Below are positions 601 to 43,938 of a stretch of 52,640 nt of DNA, one piece after another (the stretch's first letter is position 1; the number at the start of each line of letters is the position of its first letter). The notes under the pieces were generated by a model that searched no databases, was not told the DNA's origin, and was given only the letters and a program-made list of their open reading frames with translations. Source of the stretch: Bacillota bacterium. GTDB taxonomy: Bacteria > Bacillota > Clostridia > Oscillospirales > Feifaniaceae. The stretch is from NCBI GenBank assembly GCA_030705925.1, contig JAUZPM010000007.1, positions 1 to 52,640 of the forward strand. Reading direction: 5' to 3'. Position numbers and translations under genes: made by a program.

Positions 601-684
601 GCGGGTGTGGCGGAATTGGCAGACGCGCTAGACTTAGGATCTAGTGGGCTCCCCGTGCAGGTTCAAGTCCTGTCACCCGCACCA
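601..684 (+). tRNA. tRNA-Leu(UAG)
   Basis: This is an 84-base class II tRNA with CCA encoded at 682-684. The acceptor arms are GCGGGTG and CACCCGC. The anticodon stem CTAGA/TCTAG encloses the loop CTTAGGA, giving anticodon UAG (635-637), which reads CUN leucine codons. A long variable arm and a T-loop with GTTCAAGTC are present. A recombinase relic starts 70 bases downstream, so the locus may have served as an integration site, although the 3' end of the tRNA is not visibly duplicated elsewhere in the window. Confidence 0.97.
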
Positions 685-687
685 TGT

Positions 688-705
688 CGAGTGTTCATAA
701 CGACA
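688..705. repeat. Left arm of an 18-bp inverted repeat bounding the recombinase/R-M block
   Basis: CGAGTGTTCATAACGACA at 688-705 is the exact reverse complement of 6261-6278. It starts 4 bases after the tRNA CCA. The same tract resembles the recombinase-relic sequence near 800-820 (TGTCGAGTGT shared), so both arms may be copies of the end of a recombinase gene. Confidence 0.7.
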
Positions 706-719
706 CTGAACATTCCGTG

Positions 720-752
720 AATAGGAGTAACCGAAAGGTTGCTCCTATTTTC
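720..752 (+). terminator. Intrinsic terminator after tRNA-Leu
   Basis: A 13-bp stem (AATAGGAGTAACC / GGTTGCTCCTATT, one G-T pair) closes a GAAA tetraloop and is followed by TTTTCG. It is the natural end of the tRNA transcript and also faces the recombinase relic. Confidence 0.75.
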
Positions 753-754
753 GT

Positions 755-1259
755 CTATCCAGCTTTCCGTGTGATGTACTCAACCGCCACGCCCTGTCGA
801 GTGTCCATGGTCACACTCTGCGGCAGCGCCATAACTTGCGGCATATCCAGAACGCCCACGAAGTTGTAGTAGATTTCAAGCTGTTGCGTCTTGTTTCTGC
901 CGATGCCTTGCGCCTGATGAACGACAATCTTTTCAATCAACTCGTTCACAATGGTAGGGGTAAGTTCCTTAATTTCCGTGTATTTGCGCACTGTCCGCAA
1001 AAAGTTGGCCGCGCTACTCTTGTGCCGCTTTTCCGCGTCAATCTCCGCTTGCAGAGCGGAGATTTTCTTTTTGAGCGCAATCTGCTCGTCATCGTAGCGT
1101 TTGGTAATCATCATGAACCGCTCGTCCGAGAGCTTGCCGCTGGCGTTGTCCTCATATGTTTTGGTGAAAAGCGCGTCAAGCTCATGACAACGGCCATTTG
1201 CGTTTTCGCTTTTCATCCCCCTTCCCGCGCCTGTTTTCGTTGATTTTTTCAGTTGTCAT
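755..1259 (-). pseudogene. Large serine recombinase remnant (C-terminal DUF4368-like region)
   Basis: The open frame 755-1216 gives ~150 residues matching only the C-terminal part of Tn4451/TnpX-type large serine recombinases: a helical ELDALFTKTYEDN...SDERF segment, the EIKELTPTIVNELIEKIVVH block and the QLEIYYNFVG strand. The catalytic resolvase domain and the zinc-ribbon region are missing. Just upstream, a good ribosome site (AAAGGAGG, 1267-1274) serves an ATG at 1259 that encodes MTTEKI and then runs out of frame into the remnant, stopping at 1182. MTTEKI resembles the first residues of such recombinases, so the simplest reading is an internal deletion joining the extreme start to the C-terminus. 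It is nonfunctional as a recombinase. It lies next to tRNA-Leu and directly downstream (minus strand) of the structured element at 1285-1420. Confidence 0.8.
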
Positions 1260-1284
1260 GCGGTTTCCTCCTTTGTTCAGACAT

Positions 1285-1420
1285 GAAAAAAGGGCCTGAT
1301 TTTTCAATCAGACCCCCACAGGGAAATGTTTTCCCTCCCTTCGACTTCGGGCCAACTTGGCCCGAAGTGACCGTTACCATACAAAAACACCGCCTATAGT
1401 CTCACTAAGGCGGTGCTTTT
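1285..1420 (-). ncRNA. Structured RNA / attenuator-like leader, copy 1
   Basis: Read on the minus strand there are four hairpins: AGGCGGTG/CACCGCCT complementary arms (1388-1415); a 12-bp GC-rich stem (1344-1368); a short AGGGAA/TTCCCT stem (1320-1336); and GGGTCTGATT-GAAA-AATCAGGCCC followed by six T's (1285-1315), which is a textbook intrinsic terminator. It ends 11 bases before the ribosome site of the recombinase start at 1259, the layout of an attenuating leader. A related copy at 6051-6183 keeps the loops but changes the outer stem by paired substitutions. Its exact class is not recognised. Confidence 0.55.
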
Positions 1421-1453
1421 GTCGTGCATAATTTAATATTGAAAATGTTCGCT

Positions 1454-1491
1454 ATATCTAATGTAGTAGTCTACATGTTTACATTAGATAT
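1454..1491 (+). promoter_or_regulatory. Nested palindromic operator upstream of the controller gene
   Basis: ATATCTAATGTA (1454-1465) and its perfect complement TACATTAGATAT (1480-1491) flank a second inverted repeat, ATGTAG-TAGT-CTACAT (1461-1476). Several TACAT/ATGTA half-sites lie 45-80 bases before the GTG of the XRE gene, as expected for autoregulation by a controller protein. Confidence 0.6.
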
Positions 1492-1535
1492 TGATTATAC
1501 TTTAGCTATAGCATATCAAAGTGGAGGACAGTAGT

Positions 1536-1802
1536 GTGATTAAACTGAACGTACTAGAACTCTTAGCACAACAAGGAAACACAAAATATTGGCTTTATAA
1601 GCAGATGAATATGAGTTATCAAAATTTCGATCGAATGATCAATAATCAGACACGATCTATTCGTTATGAAAACATCGAGATTTTATGTCAACTATTGAAA
1701 TGTACACCGAATGAATTATTTACTATTCAAACAGAACAAGGCACTATTAAAAACAATAGAGGTGAAAATACACATGGACATCAGAATACTGAATCCTGCT
1801 AG
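1536..1802 (+). CDS. XRE-family DNA-binding protein, probable controller of the restriction nuclease
   Basis: This is an 88-residue Cro/CI-type helix-turn-helix protein. The GTG at 1536 is chosen because GGAGGA at 1523-1528 lies 7 bases before it; the earlier in-frame GTG at 1521 overlaps that ribosome site. The protein begins VIKLNVLELLAQQG, followed by a helix-turn-helix (KYWLYKQMNMSYQNFDRMIN) and a third helix block ending LLKCTPNELF, the common form of short XRE regulators. Its 3' end overlaps the nuclease start by 29 bases, so the two are co-transcribed and probably translationally coupled. Size and placement match the controller proteins of type II restriction systems, but the operator differs from known C-boxes; the control role is inferred. 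Confidence 0.8.
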   Translation: MIKLNVLELLAQQGNTKYWLYKQMNMSYQNFDRMINNQTRSIRYENIEILCQLLKCTPNELFTIQTEQGTIKNNRGENTHGHQNTESC

Positions 1803-3015
1803 CCAACCTTCAGGTGAATTCCGGATACTTCAGTGGCTTGAGGACTGTTTTGCAAGTCAAAAGTATTCCCATTGTAAATTTGCTGTTGCTTTTGCCCATG
1901 CAATACCATTTTACAAACTTGGAATACAGATTTCAAATTGGAAATTGGCAGGTAAAACAATAGAAGCAATTTTTGGAATAGACTTGCATGGTACAAGTCG
2001 TCAAGCACTGGATTATGCACTTAGTACTTTTGACAGAACGTTTGTCGTTAACACCAGGGCTTCAACATTTCACCCCAAATTATACATATTTTACGGGGAA
2101 TCCGAAGCCACGGTTTACTATGGTTCTAGTAATTTTACCGTTGGTGGATTAGAAACAAATTTTGAAGGCGGCATCATACTGCGCCTTGATTTGCCAGAAG
2201 ATAAGTCGGTACTTGAACAAGCAGAAAATACATTCGCTGCCTTGTTGCCAGAAAAATTGTCATGCTCTGTTAAGTTAACACCCGAAATTCTTATTAAGTT
2301 GCAAAACAGCAAGGTATTATTAGATGAATCCTTACCTAAACGAGGAAAAGCGAATGAAGAAACAGTATGCAGAGCTCTAAAAAACGCGGGAGATAATGTT
2401 TTAGCAGATGTATTTGGAAGTTATAAGGTAAAGCCTGCTAAAACCATTCCCAAGGCTATGATGAATGCAAAAGATGAAACAAAAAAGGGTACAAAGGCAC
2501 CCAACAAATCTCTAATTGCAAGAGCCCCAATTGTAAGTGGGCTTATCATGCAAATTGCACCACATAAAAACGGAGAAATACATTTAAGTAAAATTGCAGT
2601 TGACCAAAATCCGAACTTCTTTGGATTTCCTTTTTCCGGGAAAACCACGCCCAAAAAAGCATCAAATGCTGCATATCCTCAGAGAGTGCCTGATCCAGTT
2701 GTAAACATTGAAGTATATGATGATTCCGGAAAACTGGTTCATAGCGAATCGTTGTATAATCTTAATACTATTTACTACACGGCAAAATCAGAAATACGAA
2801 TTACCATCACTCCAAGTATCTTATCAGGCCTTTCAATAGAATCAAGCGATGAATACCCGATTCTCGTGATGTCAGAATCCTTGGAAACCTCTTGCGATTA
2901 TGATTTGACATTCTATGCACCTGGTAGCAAAGAATATATAACTTATGTAAGCATGTGTAATCAACAACTCCCATCTGGTGGTAAGTCTACACCAAGAAAG
3001 ATGGGCTGGTTTTAA
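1774..3015 (+). CDS. Phospholipase D-family restriction endonuclease (BfiI/NgoFVII-like)
   Basis: 413 residues from ATG 1774 (ribosome site AGAGGTG at 1758). The N-terminal ~170 residues form a PLD-superfamily nuclease domain with one catalytic motif: H100-P-K102 in TFHPKLYIF, then G-S-S-N120-F-T-V-G-G-L. A single motif per chain implies a homodimer sharing one active site, as in BfiI, which cuts without metal ions. After a Lys-rich linker (~200-250), residues ~255-413 contain FFGFPFSG and YPQRVPDPVVNIEV, fitting the B3-like DNA-binding domain of the NgoFVII/BfiI group. It converges on the double methyltransferase gene 37 bases downstream, the usual arrangement of a type II system. Recognition sequence unknown; an asymmetric site is inferred from the doubled partner methyltransferase. 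Confidence 0.82.
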   Translation: MDIRILNPASQPSGEFRILQWLEDCFASQKYSHCKFAVAFAHAIPFYKLGIQISNWKLAGKTIEAIFGIDLHGTSRQALDYALSTFDRTFVVNTRASTFHPKLYIFYGESEATVYYGSSNFTVGGLETNFEGGIILRLDLPEDKSVLEQAENTFAALLPEKLSCSVKLTPEILIKLQNSKVLLDESLPKRGKANEETVCRALKNAGDNVLADVFGSYKVKPAKTIPKAMMNAKDETKKGTKAPNKSLIARAPIVSGLIMQIAPHKNGEIHLSKIAVDQNPNFFGFPFSGKTTPKKASNAAYPQRVPDPVVNIEVYDDSGKLVHSESLYNLNTIYYTAKSEIRITITPSILSGLSIESSDEYPILVMSESLETSCDYDLTFYAPGSKEYITYVSMCNQQLPSGGKSTPRKMGWF

Positions 3016-3052
3016 TGGATGAAAGCCATTATTAATTACAGCAGTACTTCAA

Positions 3053-5875
3053 TTATACTATTTTTTTAAAAATCAAAATATTGTTTTCTATAATAGAATT
3101 TCCAATGTGCTTGTAGTTCTCTCGTGTCACTGTAATTGGTATATCATAGACTAACTCCCATCCTAACGCTCTACCTGTTTCCCTTAGAATTTTAGTTGTA
3201 GAGATTATTACCAATCCTTCTCCTGTTGTTGTCTTAGTATCACCGATTACTATACAGATATAACCGTTTCGTTTTACTACCATATTTAGATTTGTAAAAA
3301 CGCATGTCATGTCATTAAAGTACATGTATAGCAGTGCGGCCATATTTTTCCTTCTAAATCCAACTTCATTATTGCTATTTTCATTATGGACTTTTTGAAT
3401 CAAAAGCCACGCACTTTCAGAAATAATGAAATTAAAATTTTGCTCTTCAATGAGTCTCTCATAATAGTCACGCGTACCTTTTTTAATCTCTCGCGTACCA
3501 GTCATTTCGGCCTCGATCGGAGTACGAAGAGAAGCCGTTAAGCCATCTAAAACCAATAAATTGAGACGATTGGTATCAATATAAGGAAGAGCTGTAGCAT
3601 ATGGGGGACTAGTAATTACAAGATCTACACTATTCGGTTTAATGGAATTAAACAAATCTTGGTTTTTAGAATTACCTTGCCAAGCTCGTGCTTCATAAAG
3701 TGTGCAAGGAGCCAAGTTGCGTATCCTTGCAAATTGCAAAACCCGCTCTTTCTGTGTTGCAATCCCTTGTAGCAACATGTCAAATACAGGCGCATCTTGG
3801 AGTGGAGTGGAACGCCGCCTAATACGAAGGTCGCTTGGCTCTTGTTGGGAAATATCTCTAATAATTGAGCTTAATATCACTCTAACGAATCGTTTAATTC
3901 TATCATCAGGAATATTCTCAACTTGCCGAACTATATAGCCCATTTTACTTACAACCGGAGCGGGAAACCAACTTTGAATTTCCGGGAGAGCCACAGACGA
4001 AAAAGCATTACTATAATCAATTGTTGCATTATATGTAGATAAACTTCCAACAAATGAAGATATCTGTCGTTCAAACTCATATGGTTCGGTAAAAATAATC
4101 TCGTTTTTTGTACGAGCGATTTCTACTGCAATAGGATTTATATCACAACCGTATGCTCTGTAACCATTTAATGCAGCCTCAAGGAGTATCGTACCACTAC
4201 CGCAAAATGGATCAAACACCACACCTTCCAGGGGCGTACCTAATATACTCAATAGAGGTTTGACTAACTGTGGATAAAATTTTCCCTTGTATGGATGAAT
4301 ACCATGTGTTACATATTTGGGATCTTTATGTGTGACCTCGTCAATCTGATTACCGTTTTCTAAAATCGCCTGCCACGTTTTAAAATCACAAGTTTCAATT
4401 TGATAACCTCTATAGAAAGTTAGATTTCTTAAACAGCTAATTCTGTTTGAAGGCATTGATAATTTATTAGAATCAGGGGTACCACATACAGCATCTTTTT
4501 CCATGTCACTAATAACTTTTTCATAAGGCCACATTTTATAGGCAACTGGAATTAAAGTAACGTCTATATTAGTATCTGGTTTTTTCAATACTAATATCTG
4601 TTCATTTTTTGCCCTCCGTGCAGCACTTTGAACAGAGCGCTTCGTATCATGAATTGGTCTGTCGACGATAGTAATTGTTTTAAAGCCTATAGATTCCGCT
4701 AATTTACTAATGTGATCTGCTGTCTTGTATAGAATACCATTAAAAATAGCGTCACCTAATATAAAAACAGCATATTTTCCGGCTTTAAGCGCTTTATAAC
4801 AATTTTCTAGGACAGGAAGCATTTCATGCTCAAATTCTTCAAAACCTTTATGCTTCTTTTGATATTTTAGATGCGAACCTATTTCGGCCTTTTCCATGGT
4901 TCTAGGATCACCATCTAGCCAGAAAATGCGAAAGCGATGGTACAAATGATAATCAAAAGCATTCGGGTATGGTGGTGAAGTAATAACAAAATCTATTTCG
5001 GAATTTTTGATAGGTTTCTGTAGACCTACAATATTTTCTGTAACACTAGTTGTGATAAATTTAGATTGCTTAAATCCCAATAGTTTACTCAGAGCTTTTA
5101 TTTTTGATAAGTTTTCTTCCAAGTCCTTTATGAACAACTTAAGCGTAAATAGTGCAGGAACATTTTTTTCTTTTGCACTATATCGAGTTTCACTTTCTTG
5201 GTTAGATACTCTCGTAATTAGCTTGGACAAGGAAGCTTTAGCAATAGTTTGCGTAATATTCTGAGTCAAATGTGTGCAAATTTGATGCTTAATAAAGCTA
5301 AGTTCACATATTACAGTTTCTGAAAACCATTTGTTAATATTGGGGATATCGGGTATCTGAATACTGATTTCCTTTTGATGCGTTAAAACATAATTTTTCA
5401 AATACTGTTCATTAGAAGAATATTGTGATATTGAAGCAATAAATTTCTTAATTTCTATTTCATCTTGCTGTGTAAGTGTAGCAGTTTTAGCTTTTCCTAT
5501 AATCTCCCCTATAGGATTAATATCAGTGCTTATACACTGTCGATTAGAAAGTAATGCCTCTAAGGCCGTCGTTCCACTTCCACCAAAAGGATCCCATATC
5601 ATTTCTCCACATTGACTAAACAGCTTGATTAGAGTTTCTGGTAGCTGGGGAATGAACTTTGCCGGATATGGATGAATATCATGCGACAGATATGTAGTAT
5701 CATTATTAGTAAAGCTCCAGTCAATGGAATGAATTGTGTCGCATATTTGTTCATCCGTTGAATCACCAATATACTTAAAACTCGGATCGCTTCGACTACT
5801 TTTACTAGCGGGTTGGTTTATCTCTGACAAGTAGTTCTTTAATATATCATTAGCTTTGATATTCGCTTTTCTCAT
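3053..5875 (-). CDS. Tandem-fused DNA methyltransferase with two catalytic halves
   Basis: 940 residues, ATG 5875 with GGGGGT as the ribosome site. It carries two full sets of amino-methyltransferase motifs. Half 1: HPYPAKFIPQ (68-77), SAM-binding DPFGGSGTT (95-103), STDINP, catalytic TSPPY (299-303). Half 2: HPYKGKFYPQ (~527-536), DPFCGSGT (555-562), CDINP, TSPPY (755-759). Each half has ~200 residues between the SAM motif and TSPPY, enough for target recognition. Ser before Pro-Pro-Tyr is typical of N4-cytosine enzymes but also occurs in some N6-adenine ones. Two different halves suggest methylation of the two strands of an asymmetric site, a job usually done by two separate enzymes in type IIS systems such as BfiI. 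It would protect the host from the adjacent PLD nuclease. Confidence 0.88.
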   Translation of the reverse strand: MRKANIKANDILKNYLSEINQPASKSSRSDPSFKYIGDSTDEQICDTIHSIDWSFTNNDTTYLSHDIHPYPAKFIPQLPETLIKLFSQCGEMIWDPFGGSGTTALEALLSNRQCISTDINPIGEIIGKAKTATLTQQDEIEIKKFIASISQYSSNEQYLKNYVLTHQKEISIQIPDIPNINKWFSETVICELSFIKHQICTHLTQNITQTIAKASLSKLITRVSNQESETRYSAKEKNVPALFTLKLFIKDLEENLSKIKALSKLLGFKQSKFITTSVTENIVGLQKPIKNSEIDFVITSPPYPNAFDYHLYHRFRIFWLDGDPRTMEKAEIGSHLKYQKKHKGFEEFEHEMLPVLENCYKALKAGKYAVFILGDAIFNGILYKTADHISKLAESIGFKTITIVDRPIHDTKRSVQSAARRAKNEQILVLKKPDTNIDVTLIPVAYKMWPYEKVISDMEKDAVCGTPDSNKLSMPSNRISCLRNLTFYRGYQIETCDFKTWQAILENGNQIDEVTHKDPKYVTHGIHPYKGKFYPQLVKPLLSILGTPLEGVVFDPFCGSGTILLEAALNGYRAYGCDINPIAVEIARTKNEIIFTEPYEFERQISSFVGSLSTYNATIDYSNAFSSVALPEIQSWFPAPVVSKMGYIVRQVENIPDDRIKRFVRVILSSIIRDISQQEPSDLRIRRRSTPLQDAPVFDMLLQGIATQKERVLQFARIRNLAPCTLYEARAWQGNSKNQDLFNSIKPNSVDLVITSPPYATALPYIDTNRLNLLVLDGLTASLRTPIEAEMTGTREIKKGTRDYYERLIEEQNFNFIISESAWLLIQKVHNENSNNEVGFRRKNMAALLYMYFNDMTCVFTNLNMVVKRNGYICIVIGDTKTTTGEGLVIISTTKILRETGRALGWELVYDIPITVTRENYKHIGNSIIENNILIFKKIV

Positions 5876-5889
5876 ATCGTTACCCCCAA

Positions 5890-5922
5890 AATTCTGGGAT
5901 AATTATATCATGTCCCAGAATT
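5890..5922 (-). promoter_or_regulatory. Methyltransferase promoter enclosed in a 10-bp palindrome
   Basis: AATTCTGGGA (5890-5899) and TCCCAGAATT (5913-5922) are perfect complements separated by 13 bases. On the minus strand the spacer holds TGATATAAT (5910-5902), an extended -10. Transcription would start within the left arm, giving a ~20-base leader before ATG 5875. A protein or methylation mark at the palindrome would directly control methyltransferase expression. Confidence 0.65.
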
Positions 5923-6050
5923 ATTGGCAAGCGTTATTGCATACTAAAACAGATCGCGCCTATATTCTGCGTGATTTTATGCACAATACGCAGAGTCGGA
6001 TAATTGTTTATACTTCTGGCATTGCACAAAGCTATGGGTATAATGATATT

Positions 6051-6183
6051 AAAAAGGGCCTGATTTTTCAATCAGACCCGGCTGAAAATCGGCATCCTCC
6101 CTTCAACTTCGGGCCAACTTAACCCGAAGTGATTGCTGCCTACTCAAAAGCGTCGTCCATAGTCTTATTTGGACGGCGCTTTG
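6051..6183 (-). ncRNA. Structured RNA / attenuator-like element, copy 2
   Basis: This is a diverged direct repeat of 1285-1420. The terminator stem (6056-6079) is identical, the central hairpin (6106-6130) is partly eroded, and the outer stem is GCGTCGTCCA/TGGACGGCGC (6150-6179) around a conserved ATAGTCT loop. On the minus strand a TATAAT (6196-6191) lies just upstream, so an RNA could start at about 6184 and end at the terminator near 6051. It lies ~130 bases upstream of the methyltransferase promoter, so it does not read into that gene unless the terminator is bypassed. Confidence 0.5.
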
Positions 6184-6260
6184 TTTGCTAATTATAATGC
6201 TTATTGTAATATTCATTTGCCTGATGCCGAAAACCTTTATTTTATGCGGGTTCCCGAGTT

Positions 6261-6278
6261 TGTCGTTATGAACACTCG
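6261..6278. repeat. Right arm of the 18-bp inverted repeat
   Basis: TGTCGTTATGAACACTCG is the exact reverse complement of 688-705. Homology to the flanking pyridoxamine-oxidase-like gene resumes ~55 bases further right, so this is close to the right boundary of the inserted block. Confidence 0.7.
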
Positions 6279-6288
6279 TACCATAAGA

Positions 6289-6332: not shown

Positions 6333-6695
6333 TATATTATTGATAACGAAACATTAACACTTTATTTGCACAGTGCAAAAGAAGGGCGTAAATATAACAT
6401 CTTACAAGAAAACAATACGGTTTGTTTTGAAATGGCTTGTGAAGGGAAACTGGGCCACATCTCCAATCCTTGCAATTCGGGTTATTACTTTGAAAGTGTG
6501 CTTGGATTTGATGAGGTTGAGTTTATTGAAGATGTTGATGAAAAATGCAAGGTACTTAATCTTTTTGTAAAGTATCAATCTGGTCAGAATTTTGTTTTTA
6601 CTGAAAAACAAGCAAACAGTGTGTGCGTCTATAAAATAATTTCGAGAGACTTTACAGGAAAGAGAAAGCTCGACCCAAATGAGCACATAATGTAG
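6333..6695 (+). pseudogene. 5'-truncated pyridoxamine 5'-phosphate oxidase-like protein
   Basis: The frame encodes LTLYLHSAKEGRK, LGHISNPCNSGYYFESV and VEFIEDVDEKCK, closely parallel to the intact 160-residue flavin-binding split-barrel protein at 43456-43938, but lacks its first ~45-50 residues. The matching sequence begins at about 6333-6339, just after a TGA at 6330 and the hairpin T-run. A TTG at 6366 could start a 109-residue product but has no ribosome site. The gene was probably cut by insertion or deletion at the R-M block border. The missing part includes the first barrel strands, so a normal flavin pocket is unlikely. Confidence 0.75.
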
Positions 6696-43455: not shown

Positions 43456-43938
43456 TTACATTTGTTTTGGATTTGGCTTTATTTTACCGACGAAATCGTT
43501 CGTTGTAACTTTATATATAGCTATGCTGTCCGTATGTTTTTGAGTAAAAGAAAAATCCTGATTTGACTGATGCTTTACTATATTCGAAAGAATTTTGCAT
43601 TTTTCATCAACGTCCGTTATAAATTCAACTTTGCCGAAGCCGATCACGCTTTCGAAATAATATCCCGAATTGCATGGATTTTCGATATGCCCCAGCATTC
43701 CTTCGACCATCATCGAAAAGCAAACAGAATTATTTTCCTTCAATATATCGATTTTGCGTCCTTCTTTAGCGCTGTGGAAATAAAGCGTCAGCATGTCCCC
43801 TTCAATGGTATAGCCAAAATTGAGCGGTATCACATACGGGGTGCCCTTATCTACCATTGCAAGATTACATACCTTACATTTGTCGATGATTTTTCTGATT
43901 TCTTCAATATTGGTTACTTCTCTGTCTCTTCTTCTCAT
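43456..43938 (-). CDS. Pyridoxamine 5'-phosphate oxidase-like flavin-binding protein
   Basis: 160 residues from ATG 43938 (AAGGTGA). A split beta-barrel of the pyridoxamine 5'-phosphate oxidase/NimA class: IRKIIDKCKVCNLAMVDKG, GTPYVIPLNFGY, LTLYFHSAKEGRKIDIL, then VEGMLGHIENPCNSGYYFES and a C-terminal helix. Similar to NimA-like nitroimidazole-resistance and heme/FMN-binding proteins; no PLP pathway neighbours are seen. A 5'-truncated near relative lies at 6333-6695, and the ATC hydrolase gene follows here. Confidence 0.85.
   Translation of the reverse strand: MRRRDREVTNIEEIRKIIDKCKVCNLAMVDKGTPYVIPLNFGYTIEGDMLTLYFHSAKEGRKIDILKENNSVCFSMMVEGMLGHIENPCNSGYYFESVIGFGKVEFITDVDEKCKILSNIVKHQSNQDFSFTQKHTDSIAIYKVTTNDFVGKIKPNPKQM

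What the first reader, a model, noticed from the sequence alone, without database searches (positions are those of the whole stretch)
1454..5922. Compact R-M cassette: PLD nuclease, controller-like XRE protein and double-headed methyltransferase
The sequence shows a single-motif PLD nuclease (H100/K102/N120) overlapping an 88-residue XRE gene and converging on a 940-residue protein with two complete SAM/TSPPY catalytic sets. BfiI-type PLD nucleases are known with two separate N4-cytosine methyltransferases; here they appear fused in one chain, with a controller-like gene and strong palindromes at both promoters. I infer a type IIS-like system recognising an asymmetric site, with the two halves modifying opposite strands. 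The fusion plus controller plus PLD combination is unusual.
Basis: partly seen in the sequence, partly recalled or inferred. Interest (0 to 1): 0.72.

Follow-up and report, generated by a model that had tools for sequence, protein, structure and literature searches.

The report
BfiI-like restriction system, built-in target operator
This is a compact bacterial DNA-defence cassette in which a cutting enzyme of a metal-independent type is paired with a double-headed protecting enzyme, and the six-letter DNA word it probably recognises (TCTGGG) can be read from the paired copies that bracket the switch of its own protecting gene.

Summary
Observation confirmed. The window carries an XRE gene (1536-1802), an overlapping PLD nuclease gene (1774-3015) and, convergent, a 940-residue protein with two complete methyltransferase halves (5875-3053), with palindromes at both ends. 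The nuclease is BfiI-like: H100/K102/N120/E131 match BfiI's H105/K107/N125/E136, and its C-terminal domain matches BfiI's B3 recognition domain (Z 12.3). The methyltransferase fuses two genes that lie side by side in related systems; 24 of 45 systems examined have a fusion. An XRE gene ahead of the nuclease was found in only one of 24 relatives. New: the palindrome at the methyltransferase promoter is TCTGGG-N(13-15)-CCCAGA around the -10 box, exact in 16 of 21 members of the main fused clade, from seven phyla, including four whose nuclease belongs to another branch. TCTGGG is one base from BfiI's ACTGGG. It ranks lowest of 2,006 non-palindromic hexamers in the coding DNA of 18 cassettes (9 seen, 30.7 expected). 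Split relatives tested have a MerR-type domain; a hexamer of their own start-site repeats is not avoided. Best reading: the system recognises TCTGGG and controls its methyltransferase through paired copies of its own target. Recognition, cutting and control are inferred, not shown.

The parts
1454..1491 (.). palindrome ATATCTAATGTA-N14-TACATTAGATAT upstream of the XRE gene; probable operator of the XRE/nuclease operon
   Evidence: 1 of 300 shuffles as good; function inferred
1536..1802 (+). XRE (Cro/C1-type, HTH_26) regulator, 88 aa
1774..3015 (+). BfiI-like PLD nuclease, 413 aa (H100, K102, N120, E131)
2521..3012 (+). C-terminal B3-like domain of the nuclease (residues 250-413)
   Evidence: BfiI recognition domain 3zi5, Z 12.3, rmsd 2.8, 136 aligned
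3053..5875 (-). double-headed DNA methyltransferase, 940 aa
4511..5875 (-). N-half methyltransferase (SPPYPNA type)
   Evidence: matches the separate 381-aa gene in L014
3056..4510 (-). C-half methyltransferase (SPPYATALPYIDT type)
   Evidence: matches the separate 506-aa gene in L014
5893..5919 (.). operator TCTGGG-N15-CCCAGA: inverted pair of the inferred recognition sequence around the -10 box
   Evidence: function inferred
5902..5930 (-). probable methyltransferase promoter TTGCCA-N17-TATAAT
   Evidence: consensus match only

Best explanation
A BfiI-like (type IIS-like) restriction-modification system. The nuclease dimerises through its PLD domain, finds an asymmetric site with its B3-like domain and cuts a few bases away without metal or ATP (inferred from BfiI). 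The fused methyltransferase protects the same site, one half per strand, probably as N4-methylcytosine (inferred from the SPPY motifs and the BfiI precedent). The site is most likely TCTGGG. Two inverted copies of it bracket the -10 box of the methyltransferase promoter, so that binding or methylation by the accumulating methyltransferase turns its own gene down. The XRE protein is a local regulator of the nuclease operon. Shown: gene anatomy, fold matches of predicted models, conserved convergent layout, the conserved operator, low counts of TCTGGG in the cassettes. Inferred: recognition sequence, base modified, cutting and feedback.
For: The nuclease profile finds BfiI (2c1l, E 9.5e-10, residues 34-144) and SauUSI (5.3e-12); BfiI is Foldseek's first hit (E 1.3e-13); the C-terminal domain matches 3zi5 at Z 12.3. 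H, K, N and E are invariant in the 28 proteins aligned, window included, at BfiI's spacing (PMC4081073, passage). No further long gene lies in the cassette. In all 20 main-clade relatives the nuclease and fused methyltransferase genes are adjacent and convergent. TCTGGG-N13-15-CCCAGA sits at the methyltransferase start in 16 of 21 main-clade systems, with 11/12 and 10/12 matches in two more; in 81 sequences, 1.15 Mb, the looser CTGGG..CCCAG occurs 18 times, 16 of them there, against 2 to 10 for ten letter-shuffled controls. Codon shuffling: 9 TCTGGG seen, 30.7 expected, lowest of 2,006 hexamers, 0 of 300 shuffles; jackknife z -4.0 to -4.7. Split systems: 35 seen, 39.3 expected, rank 589 of 1,914.
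Against: No experiment. Five of 21 main-clade systems lack the exact operator (L023, L024 degenerate; L027, L028, L030 none), and none was seen in L251; the four without one still have few TCTGGG (2 seen, 9.3 expected), so operator and avoidance are not tightly linked. The codon-shuffle z-scores are over-dispersed: other hexamers reach similar values (ATCTTA -4.27 here, TCTTGG +3.85; ACCTGG -4.61 in split cassettes), so the weight lies in the hexamer having been chosen beforehand from the operator. With a Markov estimate the deficit is smaller (9 seen, 20.7 expected, 7th of 1,864). CCTGGG (9 seen, 20.6 expected) and CTGGGG (11 seen, 27.0 expected) are also low, so the site could be YCTGGG or otherwise different. 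The full operator occurs at one place in the host genome, but so does the backward control pattern. The cassettes are related to each other, and 11 of the 15 named records with the exact operator are metagenome bins (titles). BfiI's base-reading residues could not be compared (paper not held).
Confidence: 0.65

Rival explanations
1. The methyltransferase represses its own gene by binding the palindrome through a separate operator-binding surface, as methyltransferases with an N-terminal helix-turn-helix do; the half-site is not the restriction target, and its rarity in the cassette only prevents decoy binding.
For: Autorepression of this kind is known (PMC3874152, passage). Split relatives tested have a MerR-type N-terminal domain (3 of 3) and repeats at the gene start (by eye).
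Against: Fused proteins tested show no such domain (window, L022, L050: 0 Pfam families). In 11 split cassettes a hexamer of the repeats is not avoided (GCCTAT 23 seen, 13.0 expected), unlike TCTGGG. The half-site differs from BfiI's target by one base.
Confidence: 0.2
2. One reading: the XRE protein is a C-protein-like controller that governs both promoters.
For: The XRE gene overlaps the nuclease gene and has a palindrome upstream; L017 has an XRE gene in the same place, and L023 a homolog of it about 0.5 kb from the methyltransferase start.
Against: The two palindromes in the window have different sequences; the methyltransferase palindrome is exact in systems where no XRE gene was found nearby, such as L016, L019, L022, L029 and L050 (the search profile was narrow); the window's protein is HTH_26 and L017's is HTH_3.
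Confidence: 0.1
3. The nuclease itself, through its B3 domain, binds the operator and represses the methyltransferase gene. (Not exclusive of the best explanation: it shares the same target.)
For: It should recognise the same target; BfiI binds two sites at once (PMC4081073, passage).
Against: L036, L043, L050 and L058 carry a nuclease from another branch with an exact operator, so the operator follows the methyltransferase.
Confidence: 0.1
4. Conserved promoter decoration bound by a host regulator, unrelated to restriction.
For: It overlaps a probable core promoter.
Against: Found at this gene in systems from seven phyla; the half-site is rare inside the cassette.
Confidence: 0.03

Closest known systems
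BfiI / BmrI (ACTGGG 5/4), PLD type IIS restriction-modification
   Same: PLD catalytic residues at the same spacing, B3-like C-terminal domain, two methyltransferase activities, inferred target differs by one base
   Different: one fused methyltransferase here; target and cutting unproven; a target-pair operator is not mentioned in the passages read
NgoAVII / CglI (PLD + B3, ATP-dependent, GCCGC)
   Same: PLD + B3 nuclease architecture (4rct matched)
   Different: those need a helicase-like partner and use one C5 methyltransferase (PMC4267653, passages); neither is present here
MhoVII (fused M1-M2, GATG/CATC)
   Same: two methyltransferases in one chain that methylate complementary strands of a non-palindromic motif
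   Different: m6A, other methyltransferase classes and a different nuclease (PMC12898733: abstract and first part of Discussion)
CfrBI, AhdI, LlaDII promoter-methylation control
   Same: methyltransferase gene controlled through methylation of its promoter; in CfrBI the site lies within inverted repeats
   Different: other enzyme families; no cross-phylum pair of asymmetric sites in the passage read (PMC12707154)

Membership tests
BfiI-type PLD restriction endonuclease | single HxK...N...E PLD site at BfiI spacing | tested here: met
   against the residues in PMC4081073
BfiI-type PLD restriction endonuclease | C-terminal B3-like DNA-recognition domain | tested here: met
   3zi5 Z 12.3 on a predicted model; by sequence alone not found
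BfiI-type PLD restriction endonuclease | two methyltransferases acting on opposite strands | tested here: inconclusive
   two complete catalytic halves; strand choice not testable here
BfiI-type PLD restriction endonuclease | recognition of ACTGGG | tested here: inconclusive
   operator and avoidance point to TCTGGG; ACTGGG is not avoided (27 seen, 26.9 expected)
BfiI-type PLD restriction endonuclease | metal-independent cutting 5/4 bases downstream | not testable with these tools
   needs purified enzyme
NgoAVII/CglI type | helicase-like ATPase partner gene | tested here: not met
   no such gene in the cassette
C-protein (controller) regulated R-M | small HTH regulator gene ahead of and overlapping the nuclease gene | tested here: met
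C-protein (controller) regulated R-M | controller binds operators of its own operon and of the methyltransferase gene | tested here: inconclusive
   palindrome at its own promoter; a different one at the methyltransferase gene, also in systems where no XRE gene was found; binding not testable

The most novel reading that the evidence does not exclude
A restriction-modification clade found in seven phyla wires its specificity into its own control: an inverted pair of its asymmetric target, TCTGGG, brackets the -10 box of the fused methyltransferase gene and acts as a self-reading protection sensor, in place of the MerR-type operator domain of the split relatives. The switch survives exchange of the nuclease, and the specificity of uncharacterised members can be read from their promoters.
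Probability: 0.5. Interest if true: 0.72.

Novelty: new variant of a known kind. Interest (0 to 1): 0.6.

Why it matters
The specificity of a restriction system usually cannot be read from its sequence. Here it can be predicted from the promoter and tested at once, also in 18 of 5,426 complete E. coli genomes that carry a copy about 92% identical to the Kosakonia system, annotated there as 'phospholipase D family protein' and 'DNA methyltransferase'. If right, it adds a type IIS nuclease family near BfiI, shows a methyltransferase fusion kept across several phyla, and gives a case in which a dedicated operator domain was replaced by the enzyme's own target.

Tried and rejected
Rejected: the XRE protein as controller of both promoters (see rivals); the fusion as a rarity. 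A ribbon-helix-helix N-terminus was suspected by eye in some methyltransferases; Pfam gave 0 families for L023, L027, L031 and L251, so nothing rests on it.

Rivals are not all exclusive, so the figures need not add to one.

Led nowhere: phage records gave no match to the nuclease at 1e-5 or to the L029 methyltransferase at 1e-40. Plasmid records gave 7 distant nuclease matches, 4 matches to the L029 methyltransferase and none to the L019 nuclease at 1e-20. The B3 profile by sequence did not find BfiI. Among 391 class genomes 5 matched the nuclease at 1e-5: the window's own and four distant ones. Among 398 phylum genomes 3 matched the methyltransferase at 1e-60: the window's own and two over the N-half only. 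One literature search for TCTGGG with 'restriction endonuclease' and 'methyltransferase' found 0 papers; a wider one held 222 papers, and none of the 20 listed held TCTGGG or CCCAGA. REBASE is not available here. Other half-sites were noted: ACTTGA-N14-TCAAGT in L027 and L030 and ATCTGCA..TGCAGAT in L251 (by eye); ACTTGA is not avoided (52 seen, 50.2 expected in 22 fused cassettes).

Dropped or set apart: the 18 cassettes are the 16 with the exact operator plus L023 and L024 with degenerate ones; L027, L028, L030 (and L251) were analysed apart. L021 shows no methyltransferase because its record ends there. Palindromic hexamers and those with fewer than 15 expected were left out of the rank. 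The nuclease list is the best 80 of 325. One search also enumerated half-sites in L032, a split system (22 regions in all). The XRE check used narrow profiles (seeds from L017 and the window); L036, L023 and L043 have only 148, 364 and 462 bases before the nuclease frame.
Full report
Observation. An 88-residue XRE gene (1536-1802) overlaps a 413-residue PLD nuclease gene (1774-3015), which converges on a 940-residue methyltransferase (5875-3053). Palindromes lie at 1454-1491 and 5890-5922 and are stronger than most dinucleotide shuffles give. The second covers a near-consensus promoter match, TTGCCA-N17-TATAAT, with the -10 box between the arms; promoter-like matches as such are no commoner than in shuffles.

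The nuclease. Pfam gives only sub-threshold PLDc_2 and RE_NgoFVII matches. A profile of 26 aligned proteins finds SauUSI (5.3e-12), BfiI (9.5e-10) and NgoAVII (1.9e-4) among solved structures. The predicted model (mean pLDDT 87.5) has BfiI as Foldseek's first hit, with the two domains placed differently (rmsd 19). In the second alignment the PLD part matches SauUSI (Z 19.2) and residues 250-413 match the BfiI recognition domain bound to DNA, 3zi5 (Z 12.3, rmsd 2.8, 136 aligned). BfiI's catalytic residues H105, K107, N125, E136 (PMC4081073, passage) correspond to H100, K102, N120, E131, invariant in the 28 aligned proteins. No ATPase gene is present, which separates it from NgoAVII/CglI (PMC4267653, passages).

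The methyltransferase. In a genome of the same class (L014) the nuclease converges on two separate genes, of 381 and 506 residues, that match the N- and C-halves in that order; the Rhizobium anhuiense plasmid L009 has the same arrangement. Both halves run from a SAM motif (DPF.GSGT) to SPPY; SPPY is invariant in the 24 fused proteins aligned. SPPY is usual for N4-cytosine methylation (recalled). The model of the fused protein has mean pLDDT 86.0.

The family. A scan of named genomes kept the best 80 of 325 nuclease loci. Seventeen are full-length orthologs of the window's nuclease (35-49% identity); 16 of these have the fused methyltransferase, convergent, and in the seventeenth, L021, the contig ends. 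Of all systems examined, 45 have both halves, 24 fused and 21 split; 42 come from the 80 loci, the rest are the window, L014 and L009. Both half-trees group the 21 main fused systems and place three cyanobacterial fusions among split ones: two changes of state on each tree, forced by starred branches in the C-half tree but not in the N-half tree (quick trees, L014 on a long branch). By eye, Salipiger L007 carries a different kind of fused methyltransferase, whose look-alike pair is unfused in L015. In L036, L043, L050 and L058 the methyltransferase lies inside the main fused clade while the nuclease lies outside the window's nuclease clade; I infer that the nuclease was exchanged.

The operator. 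Comparing the window with L016 and L017 showed the methyltransferase palindrome in all three. The other 18 main-clade loci then served as a test: 13 have it exactly. In all, 16 of 21 have exact TCTGGG-N(13-15)-CCCAGA near the start, L023 matches 11 of 12 and L024 10 of 12, and L027, L028 and L030 have none. Enumerating hexamer half-sites over 22 regions (the 21 and L032), TCTGGG is first (16 loci); the next, TTCTGG (10) and CTGGGA (6), are shifted readings of it. By record title the 15 named ones belong to seven phyla: Bacillota, Planctomycetota, Pseudomonadota, Fermentibacterota, Nitrospirota, Latescibacterota and Thermodesulfobacteriota; 11 of the 15 are metagenome bins (titles). Over 81 sequences, 1.15 Mb, the looser CTGGG form occurs 18 times, 16 at methyltransferase starts; ten letter-shuffled controls occur 2 to 10 times. 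In the host genome the full pattern occurs only at 5893-5919, but the backward control also occurs once. Between Kosakonia and two E. coli copies the operator, its spacer and most of the leader after it are identical while the DNA before it varies more. An XRE gene ahead of the nuclease was found in L017 only, of 24 relatives; L023 has a homolog of it beyond the methyltransferase gene and L031 a weaker match. So a protein common to the cassettes probably reads this site, and the swapped nucleases point to the methyltransferase.

The target. If the system recognises TCTGGG, the cassette may avoid it. Shuffling synonymous codons within genes, TCTGGG/CCCAGA occurs 9 times against 30.7 expected in 73.5 kb of coding DNA from 18 cassettes, the lowest z (-4.57) of 2,006 non-palindromic hexamers, 0 of 300 shuffles. 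The hexamer was fixed beforehand from the operator; the scores are over-dispersed, since ATCTTA reaches -4.27 and TCTTGG +3.85. The signal holds in both genes, in a thinned set of 12 (8 against 22.6), in the four swapped-nuclease systems (2 against 8.4) and in four without the operator (2 against 9.3); TCTGG alone is not avoided (148 against 154.8). ACTGGG (27 against 26.9) and TCTGGA, TCTGGC and TCTGGT are not low; CCTGGG (9 against 20.6) and CTGGGG (11 against 27.0) are. A Markov estimate gives 9 against 20.7, 7th of 1,864 hexamers with palindromes kept; flanking DNA of the same loci gives 53 against 73.6, 28th of 2,063. Nineteen split cassettes show no clear deficit, 35 against 39.3.

An internal contrast. 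N-type methyltransferases tested from split systems begin with a MerR-like domain (3 of 3: L009, L060, L035), and by eye many carry CTATAGGCA-like direct repeats at their start. In 11 split cassettes GCCTAT is not avoided (23 against 13.0); other repeat hexamers are too rare to judge. Fused proteins tested show no such domain (0 of 3). So the split branch seems to have a dedicated operator reader, while the fused branch appears to use its own target.

Interpretation. Anatomy, fold and family place this near BfiI. TCTGGG differs from BfiI's ACTGGG in the first base only. Promoter methylation is a known way of controlling methyltransferase genes (CfrBI, where the site lies in inverted repeats, AhdI, LlaDII; PMC12707154, passage; PMC3874152, passage), and a fused enzyme that modifies both strands of a non-palindromic site has been shown for MhoVII (PMC12898733, abstract and first part of the Discussion). 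What I did not find in the papers searched (listings, and passages of a few) is an inverted pair of the probable target around the -10 box kept across phyla. Recognition, the base modified, cutting and feedback remain predictions.

Noticed in passing
window 601-1440 and 6051-6285: The cassette sits beside tRNA-Leu, next to an ORF with a DUF4368 domain (755-1216; read as the tail of a serine recombinase, recalled). It is flanked by imperfect direct repeats (1287-1370 / 6051-6132) and by an 18-bp perfect inverted repeat (688-705 / 6261-6278); parts resemble DNA in G405 and G424 of the same order.
   Followed up: partly
L036, L043, L050, L058: Main-clade methyltransferase and exact TCTGGG operator with a nuclease from another branch.
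   Followed up: yes
L009, L035, L060 and other split systems: N-type methyltransferases with a MerR-like N-terminal domain (3 of 3 tested) and, by eye, CTATAGGCA-like direct repeats at the gene start; split cassettes are low in ACCTGG, CCTGGA and CCTGGC, perhaps a hint at their target.
   Followed up: partly
L007 (Salipiger plasmid) and L015 (G132): Another kind of methyltransferase pair beside PLD nucleases, fused in L007 and separate in L015 (by eye); L015 also has two PLD genes in tandem.
   Followed up: no
L337, L338 and 16 further E. coli genomes: 18 of 5,426 complete E. coli genomes carry the system; in L338 it lies beside an integrase gene and tRNA-Leu. In two records (H18, H21) the methyltransferase is annotated as two features.
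   Followed up: partly
L023 5005-5220, L031 13038-13367: XRE-like genes beyond the methyltransferase gene, the first a close homolog of the XRE ahead of the nuclease in L017 (E 6.8e-39 to a profile that includes it).
   Followed up: partly
L251 (viral contig): A fused methyltransferase and PLD pair follows an integrase-like ORF (by eye) on a contig classed as viral; no TCTGGG operator was seen.
   Followed up: partly
window 3059-4573 (residues 435-939): The best structural match of the C-half, including the stretch joining the halves, is the tRNA methyltransferase Trm11 (6zxv, Z 18.7, 242 aligned).
   Followed up: no
window 6357-6610 and 43535-43788: A 254-base stretch is repeated, inverted and 72% identical, elsewhere in the window.
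   Followed up: no
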